From contig CADAZN010000024.1 of assembly GCA_902792435.1 (NCBI GenBank), positions 1-51,243 of the forward strand: 51,243 nt of DNA, written 5' to 3'. This document shows positions 7,782 to 43,013 of this stretch, one piece after another. The notes under the pieces are model-generated. The model was given only the letters and a program-made list of their open reading frames with translations. It ran no database searches and was not told where the DNA came from. The DNA comes from an uncultured Bacteroidales bacterium. GTDB taxonomy: Bacteria; Bacteroidota; Bacteroidia; Bacteroidales; Muribaculaceae. The position numbers were made by a program, and so were the translations under genes. How positions within the stretch are numbered: position 1 is the first letter of the stretch; each line of letters opens with the position of its first letter.

Positions 7782-7807
7782 TAGTCAGTTATCAGTTGTC
7801 AGTTATT
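7782..7807 (-). repeat. Heptamer tract (AACTGAT type) before gph
   Basis: On the minus strand the bases before the gph ATG read as degenerate AACTGAT units (AACTGAC, AACTGAT, AACTGAC). This is one of nine or more such tracts in the window, all in the same orientation relative to the downstream gene. Confidence 0.7.
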
Positions 7808-7853
7808 CTGGATTTTCTAGCATTTCGTTGAGAGCTTTCCACTCTTCATTAGG

Positions 7854-10190
7854 TTAGAATGGATAGCCGATTGAGAAGTGTAGTTCGGCATCACGCTTGA
7901 GCGAAGGGTGGACTAGTGGCCAGTGCTCTTGTCCCGATGCTGGGTTGTGGGCCTTCATACCCACATCGAAGCGCACTAGGAAGTAGGTAAAGTCCATGCG
8001 GAGTCCCAGTCCGTAGGATAGTGCCAGTTGCTCAAAGAACTTGCTAAACTTGAAAACACCACCTGGTTGGTTCTCATATTCCTTGATGGTCCACACGTTA
8101 CCACAGTCGATGAAGGCTCCCAGCTCGAGCACCCAGAAGAGCTTGCAGCGGTACTCAAGGTTAAGGTCGAGTCTGATGTCGCCGCACTGGTAAATGAAGC
8201 TGTTCTGCGCCTTCTTGCCGTCGAAGCTACCAGGACCGAGGGTGCGCACTCCCCATCCTCTCACGCTGTTGGCACCGCCCGAGTAGAAACGTTTCTCAAA
8301 TGGCAGCACTGTGCTGTTGCCATAGGGTACTGCGATGCCAAAGCCTGCGTGCATTGCCAGCGAACTGCGCTGGTTGATATAATGTGTGATGGCGAAGTCA
8401 CCGTCGAGTTTTACATACTGTGAATATCGGGTGCCAACTACCTTGTAGCTATCATCGTCTTCACGTTTTTGTCCAATCAGGTGAGAGATGCCATAGAGCA
8501 GGTTGCCCGCAGTCTCGGCCGAGGCTCTCACTGTGTAGATGTTGTCCTGGAACACAGTGGTGAGCGGGTTGGTAGCGCGTCGATTGGTCTTGTAGAAGGT
8601 GTAACCCATGCGCATGATAAGGTGGTTCTCGTAGGAGTAGCGCAGCAACGGGTTGGTGATGCTGTCCAGGAAGTTGATTTTGCTCTTGGGCAGGTACACA
8701 TAGCTCAGGTCGATGAGGTTGAACGTGTGGCGCATTTGGTTGTTGCGCTCGCTCCAGATGTATTTCCATCCACCACCAGCAATGATGCGGGTGTACTCAG
8801 GCCGTTCTTGATAGTTGAAGCTAGTCATGAACTCGGTAGAGGCTTGGATGCGGCGCTTGAAGCTGTCGCGCAGGAACGGCATTTTGAACTTGGGGAAGGT
8901 GATGCCCACGTCGCCCGAATACTCGCTGTAGTTGTCGTTGATGAGGCCGCTCAGGTCGCCCGACAAGCTCTCGTAGGAAGCCTTGAACTTGACGTTCAAA
9001 ATCTCGGAGCCCTTGAAGATGTTGCGGTGCTGGTAGTCGGCACCGATGCCAAATCCCAAGTCGCCCTCGCTGTTGGTTCCCTCGAGCGAGAAGGATATGG
9101 TTTGCGACTTGTCGCGATTGAGCAGGATGTAGGCATCGAGCAGCAAGTGTCCATCAACCTCTCCAACGGCTTTCATGTCGATGTTTATATACTTGATGAT
9201 GCCCAGACGGCCCAGTGCTTTGTAGGTGCGGTCCACATCGTTGGCGTTGTAGATGGTTCCGGGCCTGATGAAGCAGTTCTCGTCGAGAATAGCCTTGTCT
9301 ATATAGCGGTCTTCGCCATAGAGCACGGTGATGCCGTTATAGGATGTGGAGTCGCCATACACTCCGTTCTGCATGTTCACTGCATCGTAGCTGGTGACGA
9401 AAATCACGTCGCGCACATAGAATTGCCTGTGCGTGTCGATGTGTGGCATGTGGGGTAGGTCTTGCGTCTTGTCGCTCAGGGCCAATGTGAGATCCACGTC
9501 ATGAGAGCCTGCTGCCGTGTCGGCCACAAAGGTGATATAATTTTTATTGAAGGCGTAGTAGCCCTTGTTTCTAAGTCGTTGCACAATGAGTTCACGCTCG
9601 TCGTCAAGCTTTTTGTGGTCGAGGGCCGACTGACACTTAATGGGGAAGTCGGTGGTGTCGCCCAAAATTATCTCGCGCAAGCTGTCATTTGGAATATCGT
9701 AGGCTATCGACCTGATGAGGTAGGGCTTGTTGAGCGTGATGTTATATTCCACTTGCGCTTTTTTCTTCTCGGGTTTCAGAGTCACGTTACTTGTTACTGT
9801 GTTCTTGAGGTAACCCTTGTTGATGAGGGCGCGCTGGAGTTGGTTTTCGCTCGCTGTGGTGAGCGTGGAATCGTAGATTACAGGTGGGGTTCCCACTCGC
9901 CTGATCCACTTGTTGAACCAATTGCTGGAATCTTTACCTGAAATGTTGTAGATGGCGAGTTGCATCTTCAGTCCGCCCAGCACCTTGTGGTTCTCGGTCT
10001 GACGTAGGTAGTTGGTGAGCTCCTGTTTATTAAGATCTTTGGCGTTGTCCTTGTCAAGGATGTTGATTTTCACCTTGTCGAGAAGTAGCTGGCCATCGGG
10101 CACATGTTTGGTCGAAGCACACGAGCACAGCAATGTCACTGTTGTCAGCGTCATCGTAATGAGCAAGAGATGTGTGATTCTTTTTATCAT
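7854..10190 (-). CDS. tamL: TamL-type outer-membrane assembly protein (Omp85/BamA superfamily)
   Basis: A 778-residue Omp85-superfamily protein with a lipoprotein signal (TLLCSCAS, modified Cys22 or Cys24). This marks the Bacteroidetes TamL branch rather than ordinary TamA or BamA. Residues about 30-400 form the periplasmic part with POTRA-like repeats (for example the segment YLIRSIAYDI). The rest is a beta barrel ending SIGYPF with the terminal aromatic typical of barrels. The conserved loop-6 signature appears as SVRGWG near residue 642. The family helps insert or lipidate-anchor outer-membrane proteins, usually with TamB, which is not in this window. The gene has its own promoter box at 10217-10224 and leads into gph. 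Confident of family; the precise clients are unknown. Confidence 0.85.
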   Translation of the reverse strand: MIKRITHLLLITMTLTTVTLLCSCASTKHVPDGQLLLDKVKINILDKDNAKDLNKQELTNYLRQTENHKVLGGLKMQLAIYNISGKDSSNWFNKWIRRVGTPPVIYDSTLTTASENQLQRALINKGYLKNTVTSNVTLKPEKKKAQVEYNITLNKPYLIRSIAYDIPNDSLREIILGDTTDFPIKCQSALDHKKLDDERELIVQRLRNKGYYAFNKNYITFVADTAAGSHDVDLTLALSDKTQDLPHMPHIDTHRQFYVRDVIFVTSYDAVNMQNGVYGDSTSYNGITVLYGEDRYIDKAILDENCFIRPGTIYNANDVDRTYKALGRLGIIKYINIDMKAVGEVDGHLLLDAYILLNRDKSQTISFSLEGTNSEGDLGFGIGADYQHRNIFKGSEILNVKFKASYESLSGDLSGLINDNYSEYSGDVGITFPKFKMPFLRDSFKRRIQASTEFMTSFNYQERPEYTRIIAGGGWKYIWSERNNQMRHTFNLIDLSYVYLPKSKINFLDSITNPLLRYSYENHLIMRMGYTFYKTNRRATNPLTTVFQDNIYTVRASAETAGNLLYGISHLIGQKREDDDSYKVVGTRYSQYVKLDGDFAITHYINQRSSLAMHAGFGIAVPYGNSTVLPFEKRFYSGGANSVRGWGVRTLGPGSFDGKKAQNSFIYQCGDIRLDLNLEYRCKLFWVLELGAFIDCGNVWTIKEYENQPGGVFKFSKFFEQLALSYGLGLRMDFTYFLVRFDVGMKAHNPASGQEHWPLVHPSLKRDAELHFSIGYPF

Positions 10191-10216
10191 GTGCTTCTAG
10201 TGGTGCAAACAAAATG

Positions 10217-10224
10217 CAAAGTTA
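10217..10224 (-). promoter_or_regulatory. -7 box TAACTTTG upstream of tamL
   Basis: TAACTTTG on the minus strand matches TAnnTTTG, 27 bases before the tamL ATG. It is the end of the string ACTATTTACTAACTTTGC, nearly identical to the promoters at 14694 and 38807. The heptamer tract precedes it. Confidence 0.65.
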
Positions 10225-10230
10225 GTAAAT

Positions 10231-10265
10231 AGTTTTCAGTTATTGGTTATCAGTAGTCAGTTTTT
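10231..10265 (-). repeat. Heptamer tract (AACTGAT type) upstream of the tamL promoter
   Basis: On the minus strand degenerate units AACTGAC, TACTGAT, AACCAAT and AACTGAA run directly into the promoter string. The orientation is the same as at the other tracts. Confidence 0.7.
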
Positions 10266-10283
10266 GTTTGACAAAAGGTATAT

Positions 10284-10318
10284 AAAAAAAAGAAATCCCT
10301 GACTCAACGTCGGGGATT
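10284..10318 (-). terminator. Intrinsic terminator of the candidate small RNA
   Basis: Arms 10294-10302 and 10310-10318 pair over 9 bases (one G-T) around a 7-base loop. On the minus strand an uninterrupted run of eight T follows shortly after. Confidence 0.8.
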
Positions 10319-10388
10319 GCTTAACTAATTAACTTTCTAATACCATTAACATAAACCTTAAAACAATGAAAAGTATCGTCTCAAAACT
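10284..10388 (-). ncRNA. Candidate independent small RNA of about 105 nt
   Basis: No protein is encoded here, yet the minus strand carries an exact -7 box (TACCTTTG at 10393-10400) and, about 80 bases on, a strong intrinsic terminator at 10284-10318. The predicted transcript begins near 10388. Its middle part (AGGTTTATGTTAATGGTATT, then TAGAAAGTTAATTAGTTAAG) looks to me like a sequence repeatedly seen in Bacteroidales intergenic regions. That recollection is not checked. It is unlikely to be a leader, because the next gene on this strand (tamL) lies past the terminator with its own promoter. Confidence 0.5.
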
Positions 10389-10392
10389 GATG

Positions 10393-10400
10393 CAAAGGTA
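10393..10400 (-). promoter_or_regulatory. -7 box TACCTTTG of the candidate small RNA
   Basis: An exact TAnnTTTG match on the minus strand followed by CA, as at several other promoters in this window. The -33 element is not clear. Confidence 0.55.
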
Positions 10401-10558
10401 TAGCATTTTGTGTTATAAAACATAATTTTCAAGCAGAAATCGTCTTTATTTAACTTTGTTTAACAAAAATAGGTCGATTTTTCTTGTGAAATGGTAATTT
10501 TTTACCCTTAATGCTTGTTTTTTTAGAGGGGTGCAATAACCACTCAGCTATAAATAAT
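10401..10558. other. AT-rich intergenic stretch without a gene
   Basis: Between the small-RNA promoter and the DPP-IV terminator the sequence is AT-rich with T and A runs. I see no open frame of useful length, repeat or further promoter that I can support. Confidence 0.6.
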
Positions 10559-10590
10559 CTTCCCAACTCCCCCTCAAGGGAGTTGGGAAG
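10559..10590 (-). terminator. Hairpin terminator after the DPP-IV gene
   Basis: A perfect 13-bp stem (10559-10571 with 10578-10590) closes a 6-base loop, 21 bases beyond the DPP-IV stop. The T run after it on the minus strand is interrupted (ATTATTTAT), so it may be a weaker terminator or an mRNA 3'-end stabiliser. Confidence 0.65.
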
Positions 10591-10611
10591 TGGAAACTTG
10601 CAACCGAAGAC

Positions 10612-12774
10612 TTATTTCAGATAGTCGTCGAAGTAGCGGGTGATGCGCTCGTGCAGGTGCACGCTCTGGTGGCCACGCATGTTGTGGCCCTGTCCTGGAT
10701 ATACGAAGAAGTCGGGCTGTGTGTCGGCGCCGATGCAAGCTTTAAGGAACGAGTAGGCGTGCTGAGGCACAACTGTTGGATCGTTGAGACCGATGATGAT
10801 TTGCAGACGTCCCTTCAAGTTCTTGGCCTTGTGGATAAGGCTGGTTTCGGCATAGCCGTCGGGATTTGCCTGTGGGGTGTCCATGTAGCGCTCGCCGTAC
10901 ATTACCTCATACCATTTCCAATCAATCACTGGTCCGCCGGCCACACCCACCTTAAACACGTCGGGATAGTTGGTCATCAGGCTGATAGTCATGAAGCCAC
11001 CGAAGCTCCATCCATGCACTCCCAGACGATCCATGTCGACATAGGGCAGAGACTTGAGGAATTCAACACCCTTCATCTGGTCGCGCATCTCAACCTGTCC
11101 TAGGTGGCGGAAAGTGGCCTGCTCGAAATCGCGTCCGCGATTCTCGCTGCCGCGGTTGTCGAGGATAAACAACAGGTATCCCTTTTGCGCCATATAGGTC
11201 TCCCAGCTGCGGCTGCAGTAGTGCCAGCGTGCGTCAACGTTGTGGGCGTGAGGTCCACCGTATACATATACTACTGTAGGATATTTCTTGGTGGGATCAA
11301 AGTCAACAGGCATTACCATGCGGTAATAGAGGTCGGTGACGCCGTCGTCGGCCTTGATGGAGCCACACTTGTACTCAGGAACAGCATATCCCTCCCAAGG
11401 GTCGGGAGCGGTGTAGTAGCGCAGTGGCTTGCTGCCATCGTTTTTCACGATAGCGATGTTGCGAGGCACATCAGGCTCCTGATAGTAATCTACAAGCCAA
11501 GAGCCGTCACCACTCAGCACACCACTGTGCCAGCCCTTGCCACCCTCATCAACACGTGTGCGCTTACCGGTGGCTACATCCACACTATAGAGGTTGCGCT
11601 GGATGGGGCTGGCCTCGTTGCTGGCGATGATTACTGCCTTGCGAGTCTTGTCAAAGCCCATCAACTCCATTACCACCCAGTTGCCGCTGGTGAGCTGCTT
11701 AACAAGCGTGCCGTCGGCGTTAAACAGATACAGGTGGTTGTAGCCGTCCTTCTGGCTCTGCATGATGAACTTGCTATTGTCCCATGGAAGGAAAACGATG
11801 GGGTTTTGTGGCTCTACATATTTCTCGCTTGTCTCACGGTAAAGTTCAGCTACCTTGGCGCCAGTGCTAGAATTATAGCTCACCAGTCGGCAGTCGTTCT
11901 GGTCGCGGTTGATCTCAAACATGTAGATGAGCTTGTCGTCGGGACTCCAAGCGATGTTGGTGAAATAGCGGTCGGTGGGATCGCCAGTTTCGAGATATAT
12001 TATTCTGCCCGATGCCACATCGAGCACGCCCACTTGCACCTTGTGCGATGTGCGGCCTGCCATTGGGTACTTCTCGGGAGCTGGAGTGGCCTCGACATGA
12101 GTGGAATCGTAGATTTCGGGCACTGTGATGAGAGGATAGTCGGCCACCATGCTCTGGTCCATGCGATAGAAAGCGAGTTTCTCGCCGTTGTTGCTCCAGA
12201 AGGTGCCCTTCTCGATGCCAAATTCATTGCGATGCACAGCTTGAGCGTAGACGATGTCGCGCGAGCCGTCGTTGGTAATCTGCTTCGACTCTCCGCTGGC
12301 TGTTGTCACCCACAGGTTGTCATCCTTGACAAACGCCACGTTGCGGCTGCCTTTGTGCCAATCGCTGTTGGTCTCGTTCTTGTAGCTCTGACTCCACTCG
12401 GGGCAGTGCTTCTTCACGTCGACGAGCATGCGGTCCTCACCAGCATAGACCATCATCAGCGACATGTCGGGATAGGGGAATGAAGCGTAACTCAGCATTG
12501 GTGCTTTCTCGAGCCCGGCCCACTCTTTTACCTGCTCGGCAGTGAATGCGAGCGTTTCCTTGCCGGTCTTGGTGTCGACCTTCCAGCACGAGTCCCTCTC
12601 AATGTGCATGAGTTGATTGCCCATCCATGTCAGGGTTTTGTTTTTAGGCAACATTTTGTAATAGTTCTTGCCTCCAAAGTTCAAGTCCTCGAGCGTGAAC
12701 TCCTTTTGAGCACTAGCGGTAACTGACCATAGCAGCACCACAGCAGCGCAATAAATAAATCGTTTCATTATCAT
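10612..12774 (-). CDS. Dipeptidyl peptidase IV-type S9 serine peptidase (secreted)
   Basis: A 720-residue exported peptidase with a signal peptide (hydrophobic core VVLLWSVTASA, cleavage near AQKEF). Residues about 30-450 form the DPP-IV N-terminal beta-propeller, and 470-720 the alpha/beta hydrolase domain. The catalytic triad is visible: Ser in GWSFGGF near 589, Asp in GLNDPTVVP near 665 and His in GQGHNMRG near 699. The family removes X-Pro or X-Ala dipeptides from peptide N-termini in the periplasm or at the surface and feeds peptide nutrition. Length is normal for the family. The start could be the ATG at 12768 (MKRF) instead of 12774. It lies 101 bases downstream of the ABC exporter on the same strand. 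A degenerate heptamer tract lies in that gap. Confidence 0.92.
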   Translation of the reverse strand: MIMKRFIYCAAVVLLWSVTASAQKEFTLEDLNFGGKNYYKMLPKNKTLTWMGNQLMHIERDSCWKVDTKTGKETLAFTAEQVKEWAGLEKAPMLSYASFPYPDMSLMMVYAGEDRMLVDVKKHCPEWSQSYKNETNSDWHKGSRNVAFVKDDNLWVTTASGESKQITNDGSRDIVYAQAVHRNEFGIEKGTFWSNNGEKLAFYRMDQSMVADYPLITVPEIYDSTHVEATPAPEKYPMAGRTSHKVQVGVLDVASGRIIYLETGDPTDRYFTNIAWSPDDKLIYMFEINRDQNDCRLVSYNSSTGAKVAELYRETSEKYVEPQNPIVFLPWDNSKFIMQSQKDGYNHLYLFNADGTLVKQLTSGNWVVMELMGFDKTRKAVIIASNEASPIQRNLYSVDVATGKRTRVDEGGKGWHSGVLSGDGSWLVDYYQEPDVPRNIAIVKNDGSKPLRYYTAPDPWEGYAVPEYKCGSIKADDGVTDLYYRMVMPVDFDPTKKYPTVVYVYGGPHAHNVDARWHYCSRSWETYMAQKGYLLFILDNRGSENRGRDFEQATFRHLGQVEMRDQMKGVEFLKSLPYVDMDRLGVHGWSFGGFMTISLMTNYPDVFKVGVAGGPVIDWKWYEVMYGERYMDTPQANPDGYAETSLIHKAKNLKGRLQIIIGLNDPTVVPQHAYSFLKACIGADTQPDFFVYPGQGHNMRGHQSVHLHERITRYFDDYLK

Positions 12775-12784
12775 TTTAGTTTTT

Positions 12785-12815
12785 TGTTATTAGTTTCTTA
12801 GTTTTTAGTTCTAGA
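12785..12815 (-). repeat. Degenerate AACTAA-rich heptamer-like tract before DPP-IV
   Basis: On the minus strand the units read AACTAAA, AACTAAG, AACTAAT: a decayed relative of the AACTGAT tracts elsewhere, same orientation, just before the start codon. Confidence 0.45.
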
Positions 12816-12875
12816 AGTTCTAGACATTCAAGAAAATCTAGAGGGGCTAGCCTTGAGCACACTCATCTCTCACCA

Positions 12876-14669
12876 CTACTTTGGTTTATCAAAATCGCCA
12901 CTATCCTGAGTCTGGATGGTGTAAATTTCGCGGTAGATGTCGTTGTTTTTGAGCAGGTTTTCGTGGGTGTCGAAGCCTGTGATGCGACCGTTGTCCATCA
13001 CGATGATGCGGTTGGCATGCATCACGCTGTGTACACGTTGCGCTACAATCACCTTGGTCACCTCGGGCATATAGTCGCGCAGGGCACGACTGATGCGGGC
13101 GTCGGTGGCAGTGTCGCATGCGCTGGTCGAATCGTCGAGCACCAGCACCTTGGGGCTCTTGAGCAAGGCGCGGGCGATGCACAGGCGTTGCTTTTGTCCG
13201 CCCGACACGTTGGCTCCACCTTGTTCTATAATAGTGTCATATCCGTTTGGCATCTCCTCGATGAACTCGTCGGCACAAGCAAGCTTGCATGCGTGCTTGC
13301 ACTCCTCGAGCGTGGCATCGCTCTTTCCCCAGCGCAGGTTTTCGAGCACTGTGCCGCTGAAGAGAACGTTCTTTTGCAGTACCATCGACACGTTGTTGCG
13401 CAGCGTCTCAAGGTCGTAGTCGCGCACGTCCACTCCACCCACCTTGATAGAGCCGTTGCTCACGTCATACATGCGGCTGATTAGCATGGCTAGGGTCGAC
13501 TTACCGCAACCGGTACCGCCAATGATGCCAATAGTCTCACCACTATTGATGTGTAGATTTATGTCGTTGATGGCATAGTCGCATACGGCTGCTGCTCCTA
13601 CAACGCCCAAGAAGGCGATAGGTGGTGGAAGCTCACCGGTCTTATTATAGGTGAACTTCACGTTCTCAAAGTCGATACTGCCGTCGGCAACTGTCATGAC
13701 AGGATTCTCGGGATTCACGATGTCGGCTTTCTCATTGATGACCTCGGCCACACGTTTACCACTGGCGGCACTCATCGTGAGCTGCACAAAAATCATTGAG
13801 AGCATCATCAGTGCGCTAAGGATGGTCATCACATAGGTGAAGAGCGACGTGAGCTGGCCAGTGGTGAGGTCTCCACCCACAATGTGCTTGGCACCAAACC
13901 ACGATAGCGAGATAATGCAACCATAGACGACTATCATCATCACTGGATGGTTCAACGCCATCAGGCTCTCGGTTTTGACAAACAGGCTATATAATGCTCT
14001 TGCCGCCTTGCTGAACTTCTTGTTCTCATAGTCCTCACGCACAAAGGCTTTTACCACTCTAATCGCCGACACGTTCTCTTGTACCACATTGTTCAAGTCG
14101 TCATATTTCTTGAAAACTTGTTGGAACAACTTCACTGTGCGGCTGATGATGAGGTATAGCGCTGTTCCAAGGATCACGAGGGCGATAATGAAGATTGTGC
14201 TCATTTTTGTGTTAATGAACACGCACATAAAGATGGCAAACACCAAGTTGAGTGGTGCGCGTACCGACACCCTGAGAAGCATTTGGAAAGCATTCTGAAG
14301 GTTGTTGACGTCGGTAGTCATCCTAGTAACGAGGCCCGACGAGCTGAACTTGTCGATGTTGGAGAACGAGAAAGTTTGAATGTTGCGAAACATGGCCTCA
14401 CGCAGGTTGCGTGCGAAGCCCGACGAAGCAATTGCCGAAAAACGGCCAGCAAGAATGCCGAATAGCATGCTCATGGCTGCCAGCACCAGCATGATGGCTC
14501 CATATTTGTACACATTGCCTAGATGGCTCTTTGCTATGCCCTCGTCGATAATCCACGAAGTGACATAGGGAATTAGTACCCCCATCACCACCTCTAAGGC
14601 GATAAAGATAGGAGTCAATATCGACGCAGTCTTGAAACTGCCAATCTGCTTTATTAATGTCTTAAGCAA
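12876..14669 (-). CDS. Half-size ABC exporter (MsbA/MDR type) with degenerate ATPase site
   Basis: A 597-residue inner-membrane exporter half: six transmembrane helices (about 1-310) fused to a nucleotide-binding domain. Walker A is GGTGCGKST (near 382), the signature is VSGGQKQR (near 486) and Walker B is VLVLDDSTSACD (near 505). Two catalytic positions are altered. The glutamate after Walker B is Asp, and the H-loop His is Gln (VIVAQRVHS). This pattern is known from the weak subunit of heterodimeric exporters such as TM287/288 and BmrCD, so an active partner subunit is expected, but none is adjacent. The domain also carries an unusual in-frame insert of about 17 residues (LPPPIAFLGVVGAAAVC) between the A-loop region and Walker A. 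Substrate unknown; drugs or lipids are likely. Confidence 0.88.
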   Translation of the reverse strand: MLKTLIKQIGSFKTASILTPIFIALEVVMGVLIPYVTSWIIDEGIAKSHLGNVYKYGAIMLVLAAMSMLFGILAGRFSAIASSGFARNLREAMFRNIQTFSFSNIDKFSSSGLVTRMTTDVNNLQNAFQMLLRVSVRAPLNLVFAIFMCVFINTKMSTIFIIALVILGTALYLIISRTVKLFQQVFKKYDDLNNVVQENVSAIRVVKAFVREDYENKKFSKAARALYSLFVKTESLMALNHPVMMIVVYGCIISLSWFGAKHIVGGDLTTGQLTSLFTYVMTILSALMMLSMIFVQLTMSAASGKRVAEVINEKADIVNPENPVMTVADGSIDFENVKFTYNKTGELPPPIAFLGVVGAAAVCDYAINDINLHINSGETIGIIGGTGCGKSTLAMLISRMYDVSNGSIKVGGVDVRDYDLETLRNNVSMVLQKNVLFSGTVLENLRWGKSDATLEECKHACKLACADEFIEEMPNGYDTIIEQGGANVSGGQKQRLCIARALLKSPKVLVLDDSTSACDTATDARISRALRDYMPEVTKVIVAQRVHSVMHANRIIVMDNGRITGFDTHENLLKNNDIYREIYTIQTQDSGDFDKPK

Positions 14670-14693
14670 TGTACTCTAAATTTTAATTTGTCG

Positions 14694-14701
14694 CAAAGAT
14701 A
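14694..14701 (-). promoter_or_regulatory. -7 box TATCTTTG upstream of the ABC exporter
   Basis: TATCTTTG on the minus strand lies 24 bases before the ATG. It ends the string ACTATTTACTATCTTTGC, which is identical to the one at 38807 and differs by one base from the one at 10217. Confidence 0.65.
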
Positions 14702-14708
14702 GTAAATA

Positions 14709-14750
14709 GTTTTCAGTTTTCAGTAATCGGTAGTCAGTTTTTAGTTATCA
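14709..14750 (-). repeat. Heptamer tract (AACTGAA/AACTGAT type) upstream of the ABC exporter
   Basis: On the minus strand several degenerate units (AACTGAC, TACCGAT, TACTGAA, AACTGAA) run into the promoter string. It fills most of the gap to the lipoprotein stop at 14765. Confidence 0.7.
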
Positions 14751-14764
14751 ACATCTTTTGTTGG

Positions 14765-15142: not shown

Positions 15143-15161
15143 CGTGTGTGTGTTTAGATTG

Positions 15162-15169
15162 CAAAGATA
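15162..15169 (-). promoter_or_regulatory. -7 box TATCTTTG upstream of the acidic lipoprotein
   Basis: An exact TAnnTTTG match on the minus strand, 19 bases before the lipoprotein ATG and followed by GCA. Confidence 0.6.
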
Positions 15170-15293
15170 ATAAAAACAAGCGAGAATATGCTTTTAGGTT
15201 TTTGAGGGGATGTACAAATTTGTAGATTGTGTTAATTTTTGGCGTTTAAAGTCTTAAACAATTATAAATTTTCTACTATTATTTTGGGTTAAA

Positions 15294-15324
15294 TTTGTTT
15301 TTTTGAAAAAAAACACTATTTTTG
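15294..15324 (+). promoter_or_regulatory. Consensus promoter with no obvious gene
   Basis: TTTG (15294-15297), a 19-base spacer and TATTTTTG (15317-15324) are a full consensus match. The next recognisable gene starts 360 bases away and has its own promoter at 15611-15641. Downstream are only two tiny overlapping frames (ATG at 15341, 24 codons; ATG at 15412, 30 codons). Confidence 0.45.
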
Positions 15325-15641: not shown

Positions 15642-15683
15642 CAGCGTTTTTTAGAAAATTGAATCATAGAGAAGAAATATTTC

Positions 15684-16868: not shown

Positions 16869-16869
16869 G

Positions 16870-26885: not shown

Positions 26886-27779
26886 TCAAATGATGAAAGC
26901 AATGAGCATAAGGGTTGTGAAGATTAGCATGTTGCGTGCCGTTTCTCCAAGCAACGGGTTGAGGGCCGCTCCTGCGCGATGGTTGAGCTTGAACCAAGTG
27001 ATGGTGTGCATTACCAGATAAAGGGCTGGAATGATATATACCCACAAGGACAAGGTGCGCTCAAGGTAAATGAGAAGCCACAGTGGTGAGAGCATGGCGA
27101 TTGCCATGAAGCCGTTGAAAAGATAGGCAGCGGCCGATAGCCGGCGTCCGAAAATCACCACAGCAGTGCGCTTTCCCGCCTCGATGTCGTCTTCCATGTC
27201 GCGGTAGTTGTTAACCAGTAGCACGTTCACTCCCATGAAGCCTATGGTGATGCCGCCCAGCACTGCAAGAGCATCGATGCGACCAGCTATCACGTAGTAG
27301 CTGAAAATCACAGGAACCAAGCCATAGAAGATGAACACGGTTAATTCTCCCAGTCCGTGATAGGAAAGAGGGTAGGGGCCAGCGCTATAGGCAAGTGCAA
27401 AGATTGCAATGGCAACACCCACAGGAATCATCTGCCACCCTCCATAGGGTATGAGCCCGCATCCCACGAGGCATGCAGCGGCAAGAGTGATATAGGTCAC
27501 ATTGCGCAACGTTTTAGGCTTGATGTCGCCTTCGGTCACACCGCGCCGAGGCCCAACGCGTCCTTTCTTGTCGCTTCCCCGCAGGTAGTCGTAATATTCG
27601 TTGGCCAAGTTTGACACCACTTGTGCCATAATGGCGAAAATAATGCACAATATTGCCGGTATCCACTTGAAATGGTTTTGCCACACAGTGATGCCTATTG
27701 CCATGAGCACACCGCTCAGCGACACTGGCAATGTGCGGAGCCTAATTGCTTCTAGCCAAATCTTTGCCTGCTTGTTCAT
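26886..27779 (-). CDS. menA: 1,4-dihydroxy-2-naphthoate polyprenyltransferase MenA
   Basis: A 297-residue UbiA-superfamily membrane enzyme with eight or nine helices. The first Asp-rich prenyl-diphosphate site reads NLANEYYDYLRGSD (near 57-71) and the second NNYRDMEDDIEAGKRT (near 192-207). Both are the forms typical of MenA. It attaches the polyprenyl chain to dihydroxynaphthoate in menaquinone synthesis at the inner membrane. It is the last gene of the minus-strand unit that starts with porE. The gap before its ATG is entirely heptamer repeat. Confidence 0.92.
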   Translation of the reverse strand: MNKQAKIWLEAIRLRTLPVSLSGVLMAIGITVWQNHFKWIPAILCIIFAIMAQVVSNLANEYYDYLRGSDKKGRVGPRRGVTEGDIKPKTLRNVTYITLAAACLVGCGLIPYGGWQMIPVGVAIAIFALAYSAGPYPLSYHGLGELTVFIFYGLVPVIFSYYVIAGRIDALAVLGGITIGFMGVNVLLVNNYRDMEDDIEAGKRTAVVIFGRRLSAAAYLFNGFMAIAMLSPLWLLIYLERTLSLWVYIIPALYLVMHTITWFKLNHRAGAALNPLLGETARNMLIFTTLMLIAFII

Positions 27780-27784
27780 CCCTC

Positions 27785-27830
27785 TTGATAGTTATCAGTT
27801 ATCAGTTATCAGTAATCAGTTGTTACTTGT
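27785..27830 (-). repeat. Heptamer tract filling the gap between the SPOR gene stop and menA
   Basis: On the minus strand the sequence runs from directly after the TAA stop at 27831: one AAGTAAC unit, then four AACTGAT-like units, then a few bases before the menA ATG. The order AAGTAAC first, AACTGAT second is the same as at 40379 and 42921. Confidence 0.8.
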
Positions 27831-34524: not shown

Positions 34525-34554
34525 GTTGATTTTAATTATTGGTTAATATTATTG

Positions 34555-36375: not shown

Positions 36376-36406
36376 GATTCTTGTTTTTTCTAGAAATTAT
36401 CACCTC

Positions 36407-37117
36407 TTATCCAAAAAGGCGCATCATCACTGAAACGCACACCAGACCGTTGCAGAATCCTGCCAACACTTGCGACAGGTTGTGGCGCTTGAGCAAGATG
36501 CGAGCAGAGCCCAAAGCCCCACTCAATCCAATGACTACGAAGATGAAAAACAACATCCACACTGGGCTTATAACTTCCAAGTCCATTGCGTTGAGTTGCC
36601 ACAGCAGGGCCAGCAAGCCGCCCATGCCTGCCATGTGGGCACTAATTTTCCACTTGATATTGACAATCGTGGAGATAAGGCACGCCAATGCTCCACCTGC
36701 GGCAAACATTACCAACCACTGTGGCTCGTGGGTGTAGGACATATACCACACGGCTCCCAGATAGAAAATGGTACCAGTGATATAGGGTATGAGTCGGTCT
36801 TTGCGTTTGATTAATCGCTTGTCTTTTATGACCTTGAAGTTGTGGAGTACGGCAATGGTTACCATGGGGAGAACGCATGTGATGCCAAAGATGATGAGCA
36901 GCAGGTTGATGCGTGTGCCCATGTTGTCAAGCACCTTAGGCGATATGCTCAAAGCCAAGAAAACACCGTAGCTAGGGGTGAGCAACGGACTTAGCACGGT
37001 TGAAATGAACCGTGCTGACTCATCGAGAAATCTTATTCTTGCCAGTCGTGTAGCCATCAGGGGGGTGGAGGGTGATTTATAAATGTTGAGTAGTAAGTTG
37101 TAGCATGTTGCAATCAC
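36407..37117 (-). CDS. PAP2-like membrane phosphatase family protein
   Basis: A membrane protein with about six helices. C-terminal motifs resemble the PAP2 phosphatase signature: KWKISAHMAGMGG (Ser-x-His) and GSARILLKRHNLSQVLAGF (Arg and His). The family dephosphorylates lipid phosphates such as undecaprenyl diphosphate. Substrate unknown here. The longest frame starts with a GTG at 37117 that overlaps the rpoN stop (GTGA). The ATG at 37057 (MATRLARIRF) is a likely alternative that trims 20 residues. Tight coupling to rpoN puts it in the same operon. Confidence 0.75.
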   Translation of the reverse strand: MIATCYNLLLNIYKSPSTPLMATRLARIRFLDESARFISTVLSPLLTPSYGVFLALSISPKVLDNMGTRINLLLIIFGITCVLPMVTIAVLHNFKVIKDKRLIKRKDRLIPYITGTIFYLGAVWYMSYTHEPQWLVMFAAGGALACLISTIVNIKWKISAHMAGMGGLLALLWQLNAMDLEVISPVWMLFFIFVVIGLSGALGSARILLKRHNLSQVLAGFCNGLVCVSVMMRLFG

Positions 37118-38634: not shown

Positions 38635-38660
38635 ATCACACTAGTGTTGTATTGTAATTA

Positions 38661-38691
38661 CAAAGGTAATGCTTAATTTTGTTTTAGACAA
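38661..38691 (-). promoter_or_regulatory. Promoter of the rpoN operon
   Basis: On the minus strand TTG (38689-38691), a 20-base spacer and TACCTTTG (38661-38668), 27 bases before the rpoN ATG. Confidence 0.75.
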
Positions 38692-38768
38692 CATCCAGCC
38701 TGATTTTTTCTCACTTTAGCTATTGAGAGCACATGAAGTTTGTTTTATTTGCCTCACTGATGTGAAAA

Positions 38769-38800
38769 AACTGATAACTGATAACTGAAAAGTAAAAACT
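38769..38800 (+). repeat. Heptamer tract (AACTGAT type) upstream of the DUF4199 promoter
   Basis: Clean units AACTGAT, AACTGAT, AACTGAA run into the promoter string at 38807. Same orientation relative to the downstream gene as all other tracts. Confidence 0.8.
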
Positions 38801-38806
38801 ATTTAC

Positions 38807-38814
38807 TATCTTTG
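38807..38814 (+). promoter_or_regulatory. -7 box TATCTTTG upstream of the DUF4199 gene
   Basis: It ends ACTATTTACTATCTTTGC, the same string as upstream of the ABC exporter at 14694. The ATG follows at 38853. Confidence 0.65.
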
Positions 38815-38852
38815 CAGTTTGTAAGCATGGCAACAGAGCTGTGTGAGAGATT

Positions 38853-39386
38853 ATGGAAGGACAGAAAAACGTGTTTATAAAGAGTGCCGAGCTGGGTGTG
38901 CCATTTGGTGCGCTGTTGCTGCTGGCGTCGGTAGCGATGATATTTGCCGACAAGGTGCAGCCACTATCGTTTGTGACACTCTTGGTGGCCATTATCGCTC
39001 CCATGGTGCTTTACTGCTTCCAGCGCCGCCGCTTCGTTGAAAGCAATGGCTTTGCGCCCTTCAGCGAGTTGTGGACACTAGGCATTTTCACTACAATAGG
39101 CGGAGCGATGATATGCGGCCTGGCAACCTATGGGGTTATTACCTATCTAAGGCCCGACTATGTGTATGAGCAGGCCCAAACTGTTGTCGATGTCTACAAG
39201 CAGGTACCCAGTGGCGATGCCAAGGAACTGGCCGATGTGCTGGAAAAGGCTATAAAGAGCAACTTGCTGCCATCGCCGTTCGACTTTTGCGTTCAGATGT
39301 TCTGGCTCACTTCAAGCTTGGGCTGTGTGGGAGGTGCCATCACAGCATTGATAGCGGGAAAAATTCCATTGAAAAGTAACAAGTAA
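38853..39386 (+). CDS. DUF4199 membrane protein
   Basis: A 177-residue inner-membrane protein with four predicted helices (about 12-32, 40-57, 70-92 and 145-168). It matches the DUF4199 layout of Bacteroidetes, which commonly precedes a family 2 glycosyltransferase as it does here. No function is established. The last codons and stop (Lys-Ser-Asn-Lys-stop) are written by the AAGTAAC repeat that fills the gap to the next gene, so the repeat has reached into the coding end. Confidence 0.8.
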   Translation: MEGQKNVFIKSAELGVPFGALLLLASVAMIFADKVQPLSFVTLLVAIIAPMVLYCFQRRRFVESNGFAPFSELWTLGIFTTIGGAMICGLATYGVITYLRPDYVYEQAQTVVDVYKQVPSGDAKELADVLEKAIKSNLLPSPFDFCVQMFWLTSSLGCVGGAITALIAGKIPLKSNK

Positions 39387-39426
39387 GAAGTAATAAGTAA
39401 CAAGTGAGAAATAATAAATAACAAGA
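39374..39426 (+). repeat. Heptamer tract (AAGTAAC type) between DUF4199 and GT2 genes
   Basis: Units AAGTAAC, AAGTAAG, AAGTAAT, AAGTAAC, AAGTGAG and variants run from inside the last codons of the DUF4199 gene to two bases before the ATG of the glycosyltransferase. Confidence 0.85.
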
Positions 39427-39427
39427 T

Positions 39428-40381
39428 ATGGACATTTCGGTTGTAGTACCACTTTATAATGAGGCCGAGTCGCTGCCCGAGTTGGCGGCGTGGATAGAGC
39501 GGGTGATGAATGAGAATAACTTCACCTACGAGGTGCTCATGATTAACGACGGCAGCACCGACGACTCGTGGAACGTCATTAAAGAGCTTAGCGAGAAAAA
39601 TCCCTGCATCAAGGGTGTGTGTTTCCGTCGCAACTATGGCAAGTCGCCTGCATTGTACACTGGTTTCGAACGCGTGCAAGGCGACGTGGTAATTACCATG
39701 GATGCCGACCTTCAGGACTCTCCCGATGAGATTCCTGAGCTCTATCGCATGATTATGGAGGATAAATATGACTTGGTTAGCGGCTGGAAACAGAAACGCT
39801 ATGATCCATTGTCGAAGACACTTCCCACCAAGCTCTTCAACGCCACTGCGCGCATGGTGAGCGGCATCAAGAATCTGCACGACTTTAATTGTGGTCTCAA
39901 GGCCTATCGTCGTGACGTGGTGAAGCACATCGAAGTGTATGGTGACATGCATCGCTACATCCCTTATTTGGCTAAGAATGCTGGTTTCGATAAAATAGGC
40001 GAGAAGGTGGTGCACCATCAGGCACGCAAGTATGGCAAGTCGAAATTTGGTCTTGACCGCTTTGTGAACGGCTATCTCGACCTGATGACCCTGTGGTTCC
40101 AGTCGAAATTTGGCGTAAAGCCTATGCATTTCTTTGGTTTGTTGGGCAGCTTGATGTTCTTCATCGGTCTTATAGCTGTGATTGCCGTGGGGGCTATCAA
40201 ACTCTATAACATGTATGCTGGCAACCACTATATTCTTGTAACCGACTCACCCTACTTCTATCTCGCGCTCACATGCATGATTCTGGGCACTCAGCTGTTC
40301 CTCACGGGATTCCTGGGCGAACTCATCGCGCGCAACTCGGCAGGACGCAATCACTATGAGATAGAGGAGGAGATAAAGTAA
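39428..40381 (+). CDS. GtrB/DPM-like family 2 glycosyltransferase
   Basis: A 317-residue enzyme: GT2 domain (about 1-225) with the start MDISVVVPLYNEAESL, nucleotide-binding NDGSTDDSW near 40 and metal-binding MDADLQDSPDE near 95. Two C-terminal membrane helices follow (about 230-260 and 275-300). This is the layout of polyprenyl-phosphate sugar transferases such as GtrB and ArnC, which put a sugar on undecaprenyl phosphate at the cytoplasmic face of the inner membrane. Sugar unknown. Its stop TAA begins the next heptamer tract. Confidence 0.9.
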   Translation: MDISVVVPLYNEAESLPELAAWIERVMNENNFTYEVLMINDGSTDDSWNVIKELSEKNPCIKGVCFRRNYGKSPALYTGFERVQGDVVITMDADLQDSPDEIPELYRMIMEDKYDLVSGWKQKRYDPLSKTLPTKLFNATARMVSGIKNLHDFNCGLKAYRRDVVKHIEVYGDMHRYIPYLAKNAGFDKIGEKVVHHQARKYGKSKFGLDRFVNGYLDLMTLWFQSKFGVKPMHFFGLLGSLMFFIGLIAVIAVGAIKLYNMYAGNHYILVTDSPYFYLALTCMILGTQLFLTGFLGELIARNSAGRNHYEIEEEIK

Positions 40382-40476
40382 TAAGTAACAAGTAACAAGT
40401 TGGCAAGTAACAAGTTTGCAAGTAGCAAGTAGGGAACTAAGAACTGAAAACTGACTACTGAAAACTGATAACTAAT
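40379..40476 (+). repeat. 98-bp heptamer tract filling the whole GT2-DUF6452 gap
   Basis: From the GT2 stop codon to the next ATG the sequence is repeat: AAGTAAC-type units (some expanded with TTGGC or TTTGC) in the first half, then AACTGAA/AACTGAT-type units in the second. It has the same order as at 27785 and 42921. Confidence 0.88.
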
Positions 40477-40950
40477 ATGAGATTGGGAAGAAAATATGGA
40501 GCGTTGGTGGCTGCGGTGATTCTTGCTGCAACAATGTTGTCGTGCAATAACGACAACTGCAAAGGCAATAGCAATGGCATACCACTGGCAGCTTTCTTTG
40601 ATGATGACAAGCAAGTCTCTATTACTAATCTCACTGTTTACGGCATTGGAGCCCCTAACGATAGCGCTATCATACGTAAGACCGCAGCTAGCCAGGTCTA
40701 TCTGCCTTTGCGCATCACAGTGCCTACGTGCAGCTATGTGTTTGATTATAACGATGACGGAATGCTCAACGACACCATCACTCTCAACTATGACGTGATT
40801 CCTTATTTTGAGTCGGTAGAGTGTGGGTCGATGTATAATTTCATTATTACTTCATGGGAATACACCCAAAATGCCATCGACTCGGTGGCTATACCTAATC
40901 CCCTGATAACCAATAGCGATGTAGTAACCATCAAGATTTATATGCAATGA
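40477..40950 (+). CDS. DUF6452-family lipoprotein
   Basis: A 157-residue predicted lipoprotein (VILAATMLSC, Cys23). The body is a beta-rich domain, and the spacing of its cysteines in CSYVF and ESVECGS resembles the DUF6452 family, which in Bacteroidales is regularly paired with a DUF6048 gene. Here the pair overlaps by ATGA (40947-40950), so the two are translationally coupled. No role is established; membrane-anchored partner of the following barrel-like protein is an inference. Confidence 0.75.
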   Translation: MRLGRKYGALVAAVILAATMLSCNNDNCKGNSNGIPLAAFFDDDKQVSITNLTVYGIGAPNDSAIIRKTAASQVYLPLRITVPTCSYVFDYNDDGMLNDTITLNYDVIPYFESVECGSMYNFIITSWEYTQNAIDSVAIPNPLITNSDVVTIKIYMQ

Positions 40951-41849
40951 GACGCAAGATTTTTATAATAGGTGTGGCATGCTTGATGGTTGTTCTTGCT
41001 TCAATGACAGTCAACGCACAAGATCAGCAGCGAAAGGTGACTCCGGTGAAGCCTAAAACTAACAAGGTGCTGACTCCACCCAAGGGCACCGATGAGAAGA
41101 TAATACAGCAGTATCTCACTGGCGACACAGCTCAGGCACGTGCACAGGAGCGCAAAGACTCGTTGGCCAAAATTTATCCTCACTATCCTAAGCTCACCGA
41201 GTTCTCACTGGGTCTGGGCTTTGGCGACGCCCTGATGATGGCGTTTGGACAAAAGTATGCCTCATTTGACCTCAGTGCCACGCTTAACATGTGGAACCGT
41301 TTCCAATCCGTGCTGGTGGTGGGATTAGGGCGCGCCAAGAATATGCCCGATGATATGAATTTCACTTATGTGGGCAAACTCTCACCATTTTTCAAAATAG
41401 GTGCGAACTATAATTTCTTATACAAGAACGAGCCTCAATATCAGCTATATGCAGGCGTAAGACTAGGTTACTCCACTTTCAAGTATGATGTGGACGATGT
41501 GAGTGTGAGCAATCCCTATTGGGGCGAACTTGAGACCTATTACTTGCGTGGATTGAGCTCCAATGCGCTTTGGGGCGAGTTCCTTGCTGGACTTAAGGTG
41601 GGCCTTTTCAGCAATTTCTCCTTGGGATGGGAAGTGAAATTCCATGGCATTTTCAAGGAGAAGAAGAGCGATAGTGGCAAGCCTTGGTTTATCCCTGGCT
41701 ACGGAACGCGTAACGGCAATTGGGCATTTGGCATTTCGCTTTACTACACCATCCCCCTGAGCCGTGACCGTTGGCCCGTGAAGGAAGACAAGAAAAGAGG
41801 CAATAAAAAGACGACCAACAATCCGCCGGTCGTCCCTCCTGTCAAGTAA
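40947..41849 (+). CDS. DUF6048-family outer-membrane protein
   Basis: A 300-residue protein with a signal peptide (CLMVVLASMTVNAQ) and a Lys/Pro/Thr-rich linker (about 28-55). A beta-barrel-like body with alternating strands (about 85-275) and a basic, Pro-rich tail ending NNPPVVPPVK follow. The layout matches DUF6048, usually encoded next to DUF6452. It probably forms a small outer-membrane barrel. Start overlaps the preceding stop by ATGA. No terminator with a T run is evident in the 31 bases before the convergent gene. Confidence 0.75.
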   Translation: MRRKIFIIGVACLMVVLASMTVNAQDQQRKVTPVKPKTNKVLTPPKGTDEKIIQQYLTGDTAQARAQERKDSLAKIYPHYPKLTEFSLGLGFGDALMMAFGQKYASFDLSATLNMWNRFQSVLVVGLGRAKNMPDDMNFTYVGKLSPFFKIGANYNFLYKNEPQYQLYAGVRLGYSTFKYDVDDVSVSNPYWGELETYYLRGLSSNALWGEFLAGLKVGLFSNFSLGWEVKFHGIFKEKKSDSGKPWFIPGYGTRNGNWAFGISLYYTIPLSRDRWPVKEDKKRGNKKTTNNPPVVPPVK

Positions 41850-41880
41850 ATCCTAATCGAGGATTATATCTTATTTTTAA

Positions 41881-42843
41881 TCAATATTCGTGCAGGCTTG
41901 CAAGAGCTTGCTCATATTCTAGTACCAGTCGTTGCATCACAGTGTCGACTGGCTCAATGTCATTGCCTTTGAGCAGCGAGGCTACTTGGCCTATCTCCAG
42001 CTCACCGTTCTCGACATCGCCATCAAAGATACCAGCCTTGGTTTTTCCTATGCCTATAATGTCGAGCAGCTCCTCGCCACTGGCACCACGATTCTCGGCC
42101 TCCTCGATGGCGTCGTAGAAACCGCCTTTCACCAGTCGGGTGGGCGAGAGCTTGCGCAACAGCAGTTTTGTGTCACCCTCGTTAAGGTCGAGACAGCGAC
42201 GCTTGAAGGCCTCGTGGGCACCACTCTCTTGGGTGAGGGCAAATAATGTGCCTATCTGCACACCCTCGGCTCCCAGCACTTTTGTAGCAAGAATTGCCTC
42301 GCCACTGGCAATGCCACCCGCAGCAATCAGCGGCAACTTTGTGGCTTTGCGGGCTGCTGGTATCAAGCACATTGTCGTAGTCTCTTCTTTGCCATTGTGT
42401 CCTCCAGCCTCAAAACCCTCGGCAACCACAGCGTCAACTCCAGCCTCCTCGCATTTGCGGGCAGAAGTGGATGATGCCACCACATGGGCGACCTTGATGC
42501 CGCGCTCGTGTAGCCAAGCAGTCCACTTCTTAGGGCTGCCAGCGCTGGTGAACACTACAGGCACATGCTCCTCGGCAATAACATCCATGATTTCGGCTAC
42601 ATTGGGCTTCATCAGTGGCACATTTACGCCAAATGGCTTTTGCTCGTCATCAACATAGGTGGCCTCACGGCACTGAGTGATGTGCTCCCTGAGCACCTCA
42701 GGCGTCATCGAGCCTGCACCTATCAGGCCTAGGCCGCCAGCGTTGCTCACTGCCGCCGCTAGTTTCCAACCACTGCACCACACCATGCCGCCAGCAATGA
42801 TGGGATATTCAATTCCAAAGAGTTTGGTAATTCTACTTTTCAT
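41881..42843 (-). CDS. Nitronate monooxygenase / FabK-like flavoprotein
   Basis: A 320-residue FMN TIM-barrel protein of the 2-nitropropane dioxygenase superfamily. Diagnostic strings are YPIIAGGMVW (start of barrel), VSNAGGLGLIGAG, the substrate-side AEGFEAGGHNG near 140-150, LIAAGGIASGEA and GAEGVQIGTLFAL. The EAGGH motif is shared by FabK-type enoyl-ACP reductases and nitronate monooxygenases, and sequence alone does not decide between oxidising nitronates and the last step of fatty-acid elongation. It has a full consensus promoter at 42875-42906. A stand-alone transcription unit is likely. Confidence 0.82.
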   Translation of the reverse strand: MKSRITKLFGIEYPIIAGGMVWCSGWKLAAAVSNAGGLGLIGAGSMTPEVLREHITQCREATYVDDEQKPFGVNVPLMKPNVAEIMDVIAEEHVPVVFTSAGSPKKWTAWLHERGIKVAHVVASSTSARKCEEAGVDAVVAEGFEAGGHNGKEETTTMCLIPAARKATKLPLIAAGGIASGEAILATKVLGAEGVQIGTLFALTQESGAHEAFKRRCLDLNEGDTKLLLRKLSPTRLVKGGFYDAIEEAENRGASGEELLDIIGIGKTKAGIFDGDVENGELEIGQVASLLKGNDIEPVDTVMQRLVLEYEQALASLHEY

Positions 42844-42874
42844 GTTTTCAGTGTTATAGTTTTTATTCCGACTT

Positions 42875-42906
42875 CAAAGATACATTCTTTTTTTGAGAAT
42901 CTCAAA
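42875..42906 (-). promoter_or_regulatory. Promoter of the FabK/NMO-like gene
   Basis: On the minus strand TTTG (42903-42906), a 20-base spacer and TATCTTTG (42875-42882): an exact consensus match. An inverted repeat TTGAGA-TCTCAA overlaps the -33 side and could bind a regulator. Confidence 0.8.
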
Positions 42907-42920
42907 AACGCGACACATTT

Positions 42921-43013
42921 ATTAGTTTTCAGTTTTCAGTTTTCAGTTATCAGTTATCAGTTATCAGTTGTTACTTGTTACTTCCCACTTGTTACTTCCT
43001 ACTTCCTACTTAT
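42921..43013 (-). repeat. Heptamer tract starting at the M15 peptidase stop codon
   Basis: On the minus strand the tract starts with the stop TAA of the M15 gene: AAGTAGG/AAGTAAC units, then clean AACTGAT and AACTGAA units, ending about 15 bases before the -33 box of the next gene. The same order as at 40379. Confidence 0.88.

What the first reader, a model, noticed from the sequence alone, without database searches (positions are those of the whole stretch)
7782..43013. Heptamer tracts that place stop codons in all three frames, only on the sense strand
At least nine intergenic gaps (7782, 10231, 12785, 14709, 27785, 38769, 39374, 40379, 42921) hold tandem or degenerate heptamers AACTGAT/AACTGAA or AAGTAAC. 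All are oriented so that these units read in the direction of the downstream gene. Three units in a row put TGA or TAA into every reading frame. The reverse complements (ATCAGTT and GTTACTT repeats) contain no stop codon in any frame. The strict orientation is therefore what selection for an all-frame translation stop between co-directional genes would give. Analogous heptamer repeats (STRR) are known in filamentous cyanobacteria, but I know of no such description for this group.
Basis: partly seen in the sequence, partly recalled or inferred. Interest (0 to 1): 0.75.

Follow-up and report, generated by a model that had tools for sequence, protein, structure and literature searches.

The report
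Heptamer repeat tracts between genes
Runs of seven-letter DNA repeats in the gaps between genes of a rumen bacterium are real and mostly face the next gene, but they look like a known kind of fast-changing intergenic repeat rather than built-in stop signals, and one kind of them is fixed in step with gene promoters.

Summary
Eight gaps are co-directional; 38769 is divergent. In 1.18 Mb of the same Muribaculaceae MAG, period 7 stands far above chance between genes (74 arrays, 0.2 simulated; 3 in coding DNA). Orientation is a bias, not a rule: 48 sense, 18 antisense gaps. Tracts are as common in convergent as in co-directional gaps there (15/114, 81/603). In a second species orientation follows the A-rich strand before the START codon (26:2), not the stop (12:15); the own genome alone does not show this contrast. 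Selection for an all-frame stop is not supported. At two operon junctions tracts differ or are missing between close species, and the variable base of AACTGAN alternates with a 14-nt step, as tandem duplication would give. TAACTGA repeats, their three-frame stops and Bacteroidetes cases are already published (PMC4679880). Apparently new: a subset is phase-locked to Bacteroidales promoters. AACT-N3-AACT-N6-TAHHTTTGC occurs 636 times in 68 of 101 genus genomes, against 4 hits with an N9 spacer.

The parts
7785..7806 (-). AACTGAN array about 9 nt before the start of the 7108-7776 gene (HAD hydrolase)
10231..10266 (-). Degenerate AACTGAN array upstream of a phased promoter-like site of the Omp85-type gene 7854-10190
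10216..10241 (-). Heptad promoter motif AACT-N3-AACT-N6-TAACTTTGC
12774..12812 (-). Degenerate AACTAAN tract before the 10612-12774 gene; stops in 3 frames on both strands
14704..14750 (-). AACTGAN/AACTAAN tract upstream of the ABC transporter gene 12876-14669
14693..14718 (-). Heptad promoter motif AACT-N3-AACT-N6-TATCTTTGC
27790..27821 (-). AACTGAT array between two co-directional genes, about 10 nt from the start of the UbiA-family gene 26886-27779
38766..38800 (+). AACTGAT array in a DIVERGENT gap, in phase with the promoter-like box of the DUF4199 gene; 10 of 17 close species have AACT at -17 and -10 of this box
38807..38815 (+). -7 promoter box TATCTTTGC of the DUF4199 gene
39374..39425 (+). 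AAGTAAN array that fills the gap and supplies the stop codon (39384-39386) of the DUF4199 gene
40376..40475 (+). AAGTAAN then AACTGAN arrays that fill the gap between the glycosyltransferase and DUF6452 genes and supply the stop at 40379-40381; short or filled with other units in relatives
42919..43011 (-). AAGTAGG/AAGTAAC then AACTGAN arrays after the peptidase gene 43010-43780 (whose stop lies in the array); not seen in the 170 nt upstream of the NMO gene in 16 relatives
42875..42882 (-). -7 promoter box TATCTTTG of the NMO-family gene, with an ordinary TTTG at -24; the array lies 45 nt and more upstream

Best explanation
The tracts are labile intergenic heptamer arrays of the kind known as STRR or TAACTGA repeats. 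Shown here: period 7 is far above neighbouring periods; many unrelated units occur; at one gene junction one species has an AAGTAAC array, another AAGTAGG, others AAGTGTT, and most have none; the variable seventh base of AACTGAN alternates with a two-unit step. Inferred: arrays are born from short seeds and grow by 7- and 14-nt tandem duplication (slippage or unequal exchange), surviving between genes because they would break coding frames. Orientation comes mainly from what is tolerated or favoured in front of the downstream gene: an A-rich, weakly pairing leader before the start codon in a phylum without Shine-Dalgarno sites (best shown in G074). A distinct AACT-type subset belongs to a promoter architecture in which AACT motifs 7 nt apart lie in fixed phase with the TAHHTTTG box. 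Such promoters may have seeded the commonest unit, AACTGAN. The three-frame stops are a by-product of units containing TGA or TAA.
For: Period spectrum. Presence, absence and unit change at the same junction among near relatives. Alternation of the variable base of AACTGAN: lag 2, 36 of 72 same against 23.6 expected; lag 1, 32 of 118 against 37.3; in G074 lag 1, 35/77 against 44.1, lag 2, 38/56 against 30.4, lag 4, 23/31 against 14.2. Start-side orientation in G074, 26:2 against 12:15, Fisher p = 1e-4; pooled with own 68:12 against 48:30, p = 0.001. Convergent gaps equal co-directional gaps in the own genome, divergent gaps fewer (15/114, 81/603, 8/119). Promoter phase: 14 of 17 promoter-like sites with an AACT pair have it in one of seven phases (p = 6.5e-10); 636 hits with the N6 spacer against 4 with N9 in the same 101 genomes. 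Adenines upstream of the start are positive determinants in a Bacteroidetes species (PMC6847099, passages).
Against: In the window's own genome the start/stop contrast is not significant (p = 0.26). Arrays end close to start codons only slightly more than random placement gives (19 against 13.6, p = 0.03) and equally close to stops; in G074 not at all (12 against 11.2). The two-unit step is weak for AAGTAAN (lag 2, 37/73 against 31.7, p = 0.08) and absent for AACTAAN in both species; in other genomes of the order identical neighbouring units look common. The duplication mechanism is inferred from pattern alone; no strains were compared. C1, 338 kb of the same MAG, has tracts in only 5 of 248 gaps, which the model does not explain. 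In AACTGAN and AAGTAAN the variation is concentrated at the seventh base while five of the other six positions are at or above 0.87, which plain slippage plus drift does not predict.
Confidence: 0.6

Rival explanations
1. Selected all-frame translation stops: arrays are kept in sense orientation so that a ribosome in any frame terminates before the next gene.
For: Sense bias 48:18 and 17:5 gaps; all nine window tracts stop all frames in sense; frames close sooner in gaps with tracts, 29 against 58 nt; in the own genome stop-rich sense is favoured also near stops, 26:10; in G074 co-directional gaps lead over convergent ones, p = 0.08.
Against: Equal frequency in convergent gaps in the own genome; near upstream stops the stop-rich bias is 8:6 in G074; reverse arrays shortly after stop codons in G074; bias persists before start codons in units with equal stops on both strands (11:0 in G074; 14:2 pooled); a divergent and promoter-upstream cases in the window; absent in most relatives at the junctions compared.
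Confidence: 0.12
2. Binding sites for a sequence-specific RNA- or DNA-binding protein that reads AACTGA every seven bases, for instance a translational regulator at the start codon, as MacGregor proposed for Beggiatoaceae.
For: Six positions better kept and one free in AACTGAN; arrays reach start codons in many gaps; sense orientation.
Against: Unit sequence differs between species at one junction and between gaps of one genome; most orthologous junctions compared have no array; close approach to start codons barely exceeds random placement.
Confidence: 0.15
3. Spread of a mobile promoter-plus-repeat cassette, so that phase with the promoter is shared ancestry rather than function.
For: Similar spacers AACTTTTTnn and AACTATTTnn at many promoters; arrays beside an interspersed element of about 100 nt.
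Against: Sequence downstream of the -7 box and further upstream differs between the promoters printed; the DUF4199 promoter has AACT at -17 and -10 in 10 of 17 close species while the unit sequence changes.
Confidence: 0.2

Closest known systems
TAACTGA direct repeats of Beggiatoaceae, Cyanobacteria and Bacteroidetes (MacGregor 2015, PMC4679880; abstract, passages and two named sections read)
   Same: Same heptamer (AACTGAT is a rotation of TAACTGA), intergenic, in its main genome mostly forward toward the next start codon, in some genomes mixed with other heptamers, stops in three frames noted, five Bacteroidetes listed.
   Different: Different family and genus here; a wide set of unit families; unit change between species at one junction; two-unit alternation; phase with the TAHHTTTG promoter box. 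The paper favours a binding protein and horizontal transfer.
Heptameric SSRs over-represented in bacterial intergenic DNA (Xanthomonas and Nostoc; PMC4692102, passages read; it cites a 2007 survey and a slippage hypothesis)
   Same: Period 7, mostly in intergenic DNA, with length and sequence variation between close relatives.
   Different: Units there are G-rich and quadruplex-forming; here they are A-rich. That paper found the repeats at relatively conserved positions; at the junctions compared here most relatives have none.
Short tandemly repeated repetitive (STRR) heptamers of filamentous cyanobacteria
   Same: Tandem heptamers.
   Different: Other units and phylum; no link to a Bacteroidales promoter known to me.
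Bacteroidales primary promoter, -33 TTTG and -7 TAnnTTTG (PMC6847099, passages read)
   Same: The -7 box TAHHTTTG is present.
   Different: AACT motifs at 7-nt steps occupy the upstream region; none of 13 phased promoters has TTTG starting at -26 to -21, against 98 of all 386 promoter-like sites.

Membership tests
TAACTGA / STRR-type intergenic heptamer repeats | Tandem direct repeats with period 7 | tested here: met
   74 arrays against 0.2 simulated; neighbouring periods 5, 6 and 8 give 0, 3 and 4, period 9 gives 21
TAACTGA / STRR-type intergenic heptamer repeats | Intergenic, nearly absent from genes | tested here: met
   3 exact arrays in 1.02 Mb coding; 7 of 143 tracts inside called genes
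TAACTGA / STRR-type intergenic heptamer repeats | Unit TAACTGA | tested here: met
   AACTGAT family is the largest, 43 of 136 intergenic tracts; AAGTAAN and others are different units
TAACTGA / STRR-type intergenic heptamer repeats | Ends within a few nt of a start codon more than chance | tested here: inconclusive
   own 19 of 61 against 13.6 expected, p = 0.03; G074 12 of 35 against 11.2
Contingency (phase-variable) simple sequence repeat | Copy number varies within a species | not testable with these tools
   one genome per species held
Selected all-frame translation stop | Stop-rich strand favoured just after upstream stop codons more than elsewhere | tested here: not met
   nearer the stop: G074 8:6, own 26:10; nearer the start 14:3 and 36:11; no contrast in either (p = 0.23 and 0.80). 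Own does show bias near stops, G074 does not
Bacteroidales primary promoter | -7 box TAnnTTTG | tested here: met
   (by sequence only; no start sites were measured)
Bacteroidales primary promoter | -33 box TTTG at the usual distance | tested here: not met
   13 phased promoters have no TTTG starting at -26 to -21; 98 of all 386 promoter-like sites do. The 14th site, 42882, has TTTG at -24 and no AACT nearer than -45

The most novel reading that the evidence does not exclude
This genus uses a heptad promoter: RNA polymerase or an unknown factor reads AACT motifs at -10, -17, -24 and so on from the TAHHTTTG box, at housekeeping genes such as three aminoacyl-tRNA synthetases and PNPase. The element is itself a tandem heptamer, so it keeps spawning AACTGAN arrays by 7/14-nt duplication, which then spread through gene gaps and supply ready-made leaders and promoters.
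Probability: 0.25. Interest if true: 0.72.

Novelty: new variant of a known kind. Interest (0 to 1): 0.5.

Why it matters
Heptamer arrays recur in distant phyla without an agreed cause. This genus offers 101 held species with array loads from 0 to 179 exact AACTGAW pairs, empty and filled sites at the same junction, and a measurable two-unit growth step, so birth, growth and orientation can be tested. The promoter phase (636 hits against 4) points to an apparently undescribed upstream element in Bacteroidales transcription, where the -33 box was found to be much less evident in the one species whose paper I read in part (PMC6847099).

Tried and rejected
Template model (six templated bases plus one untemplated base per unit): suggested by independence of neighbouring variable bases; rejected when lag-2 and lag-4 identity proved high for AACTGAN.

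Replication-strand orientation: rejected, 45 agree and 42 disagree with local GC skew.

C1 and C2 as a validation set: they carry few tracts (7 of 316 gaps; sense 3, antisense 1; C1 alone 5 of 248 gaps, one of them a 197-nt ACTTGTT array), so they could not test orientation. Contamination was considered because C1 has 42.4% GC (the tract column of that call covered only the first 20 kb of C1 and C2 and is not used). The C1 PGK (named by eye) has the same three nearest genomes among 41 sampled as the window's glycosyltransferase (G083, G086, G031) and the MAG is listed at 0.64% contamination, so I treat it as the same organism. The low density there stays unexplained; four relative stretches around the same gene had no tract, one had two.

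Family loci L061-L140 gave too few tracts for orientation (6 sense, 4 antisense). Close approach to the start codon as a general rule: weak.

The order-level search for the AACTGA triple (25 of 393 genomes) shows sporadic presence across families, with identical neighbouring units common in the listed matches, unlike the window's genome.
Full report
What was checked. Every one reads toward the downstream gene and has stops in all three frames on that strand. Eight gaps are co-directional and one, 38635-38852 with the array at 38766-38800, is divergent. The reverse strands of the real, degenerate tracts are not free of stops (0 to 3 frames).

Is it more than chance? The window comes from a Muribaculaceae MAG (named relatives; 2,958,346 bases in 56 contigs). 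From 1,178,936 bases of it, with genes called by my own script (930 genes, 85% coding; starts extended), 836 gaps were taken. Exact period-7 arrays with at least 11 matching steps number 74 against 0.2 in simulations; periods 5, 6 and 8 give 0, 3 and 4, period 9 gives 21. Only 3 occur in coding DNA. With a looser detector 97 gaps have period-7 tracts, against 3 to 22 for periods 5, 6 and 8 to 11. Of 143 tracts 7 lie inside called genes. The units are many: AACTGAN, AAGTAAN, AATGCAN, AAACGAT, AACTATG, AATCNCT, AACTCAN. The contigs were picked because they had AACTGAW pairs, so the density is an overestimate; 438 kb of C1 and C2 have tracts in only 7 of 316 gaps.

Orientation. By gap, co-directional tracts are stop-rich in sense in 48 and in antisense in 18, with 15 ties (p = 3e-4); by tract 63 to 21 with 23 ties. 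GC skew does not explain it (45:42). AACTGA-type tracts are 35:7, AAGTAA 13:3, AACTCA 7:0, AATGCA 8:3, AAACGA 7:3, TGAACT 4:4, AATC-type 4:6. So the bias is real, uneven between families, and not strict. Outside this sample it could hardly be tested: C1 plus C2 gave 3:1 and 80 family loci 6:4.

Test of the stop hypothesis. A second genus member, G074 (398 kb), has 61 period-7 arrays in gaps against at most 8 at the periods from 4 to 24 that are not multiples of 7. There tracts occur in 46 of 183 co-directional, 4 of 36 convergent and 4 of 31 divergent gaps, so co-directional gaps do lead in that species (p = 0.08 against convergent). Its tracts nearer the start codon are A-rich in sense 26:2, those nearer the stop 12:15 (Fisher p = 1e-4). 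Within 20 nt of the start the ratio is 26:1, and beyond 60 nt it is 4:11. Tracts with equal stops on both strands show the same near the start, 11:0 in G074, 3:2 in own. The stop-rich contrast between start and stop side is not significant in either genome (p = 0.23 and 0.80). In the window's own genome A-rich sense is 42:10 near starts and 36:15 near stops, p = 0.26. The evidence for a start-side rule therefore rests on G074 and on the pooled table (68:12 against 48:30, p = 0.001). That follows from the unit sequence and does not by itself show selection.

Origin and turnover. Junctions were read by eye, with gene starts approximate. At 40382-40476 the window has a 95-nt gap of AAGTAAN then AACTGAN. 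Of the 17 nearest species, L061 has an AAGTAGG array there, L064 AAGTGTT plus AACTGAC, L076 AAGTGTT, L063 a short TTGGTTC-like run, 12 have 4 to 42 nt without a clear heptamer tract, and in L077 the genes overlap. At 39387-39427 one of the 17, L067, shows an AACTAAA-like tract; the others do not, though some of the more distant loci (for example L081, L094, L136) have heptamer runs of other units. The array at 42919-43011 is not seen in the 170 nt upstream of the NMO gene in the 16 relatives printed, 15 of which have a TANNTTTG box there. The variable seventh base of AACTGAN (T .41, A .31, C .17, G .10) alternates: neighbours are the same less often, and next-neighbours more often, than in shuffled arrays, in both species; the signal is weak for AAGTAAN and absent for AACTAAN. 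I read it as the mark of a 14-nt duplication step. Passages of PMC4692102 say that heptameric SSRs were found over-represented in many bacterial genomes in 2007 and that polymerase slippage was proposed.

Promoter phase. Among promoter-like TAHHTTTG sites in the own sample, 17 of 386 have an AACT pair 7 nt apart within 70 nt upstream, and 14 of those 17 are in one phase, with AACT at -10, -17, -24 and so on. One of the 14, at 42882, has its AACT motifs only at -45 and beyond and an ordinary TTTG at -24, so it is probably chance; the other 13 have no TTTG starting at -26 to -21, against 98 of all 386 sites. The window holds three clear cases: 10224, 14701 and 38807. At the DUF4199 promoter 10 of 17 near species have AACT at -17 and -10 while the rest of the unit changes; L072 has only the one at -10, L061, L065, L066 and L074 have the box without it, and L067 and L077 show no box (sequences). 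Across 101 whole genomes of the genus, AACT-N3-AACT-N6-TAHHTTTGC gives 636 hits in 68 genomes, N9 in place of N6 gives 4 hits in 4 genomes, and the backward N6 pattern gives none. In 41 genomes, 219 of 374 hits with any spacer from 0 to 20 have N6; hits with 13 and 20 are partly the same arrays. In 294 other genomes of the order, 25 have 1 to 3 hits, 35 in all, against 8 for the backward pattern. Counts of the promoter and of AACTGAW pairs correlate over the 101 genomes (Spearman 0.66), without correction for shared ancestry. The own sample's downstream genes include MetRS, ValRS, ArgRS, PNPase, a RecF/SMC-type ATPase, three peptidases, a TonB receptor, an ABC transporter and an Omp85 protein (Pfam; list; PNPase named from its domains). 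The 17 nearest species' loci show the phase too (47 against 2 to 8 per other phase), but DUF4199 orthologues weigh heavily there. No phase signal is seen in C1 plus C2 or in the more distant family loci, and it is weak in the G074 sample. All this is sequence pattern; no transcription start was measured.

Known or new. MacGregor 2015 (PMC4679880; abstract, passages, Bacteroidetes and summary sections read) already describes the repeat, its forward orientation before start codons, its three-frame stops and Bacteroidetes examples. Ten paper searches were made. By the titles and starts of abstracts listed, none concerned a heptad or AACT-phased promoter in Bacteroidales; several lists were capped (30 of 2,236, 10 of 2,327, 12 of 108, 8 of 11). 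One search held no paper with 4 of its 5 terms, none for Muribaculaceae with tandem repeats and intergenic, and the 17 papers with TAnnTTTG were seen only as listings, apart from passages of PMC6847099. Most subscription papers are not in the library, so novelty of the promoter is provisional.

Verdict. Observation partly confirmed. The all-frame-stop reading is a true property of the units but not supported as their reason. The tracts are best read as labile heptamer arrays oriented by the needs of the downstream gene, with one family tied to a promoter element that appears undescribed.

Noticed in passing
G000 C7 29304-29523, C15 24765-24962, C10 45760-45915, C32 2397-2946: An interspersed element of about 100 nt (GACAATTAAGGACAATAT ... 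GACTCGGACTTTTT, either strand) sits beside or between heptamer arrays in several gaps.
   Followed up: no
G074 sample, e.g. L202:12169-12178, L203:5518-5527, L206:5605-5614, L210:14260-14269: In G074 a GGCATCCGC/GCGGATGCC core often lies between a T-rich array after the stop codon and a complementary A-rich array before the next start: 8 of 12 gaps with two or more tracts are inverted pairs, against 4 of 25 in the own sample. The core is at 13 gap places of 20 in G074 and in no gap of the own sample.
   Followed up: partly
G000 contig C1 (338 kb sampled): A long stretch of the same MAG with core genes, 42.4% GC, tracts in only 5 of 248 gaps (one of them 197 nt long at 319516-319712) and, together with C2, no phased promoters.
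   Followed up: partly
own sample, intergenic: Period 9 is a second, smaller peak of intergenic tandem arrays: 21 against 0.0 simulated.
   Followed up: no
L079, junction before the glycosyltransferase gene: A more distant relative has a run that looks like an octamer repeat (GAATGCTC-like) at the same junction.
   Followed up: no
   Followed up: no
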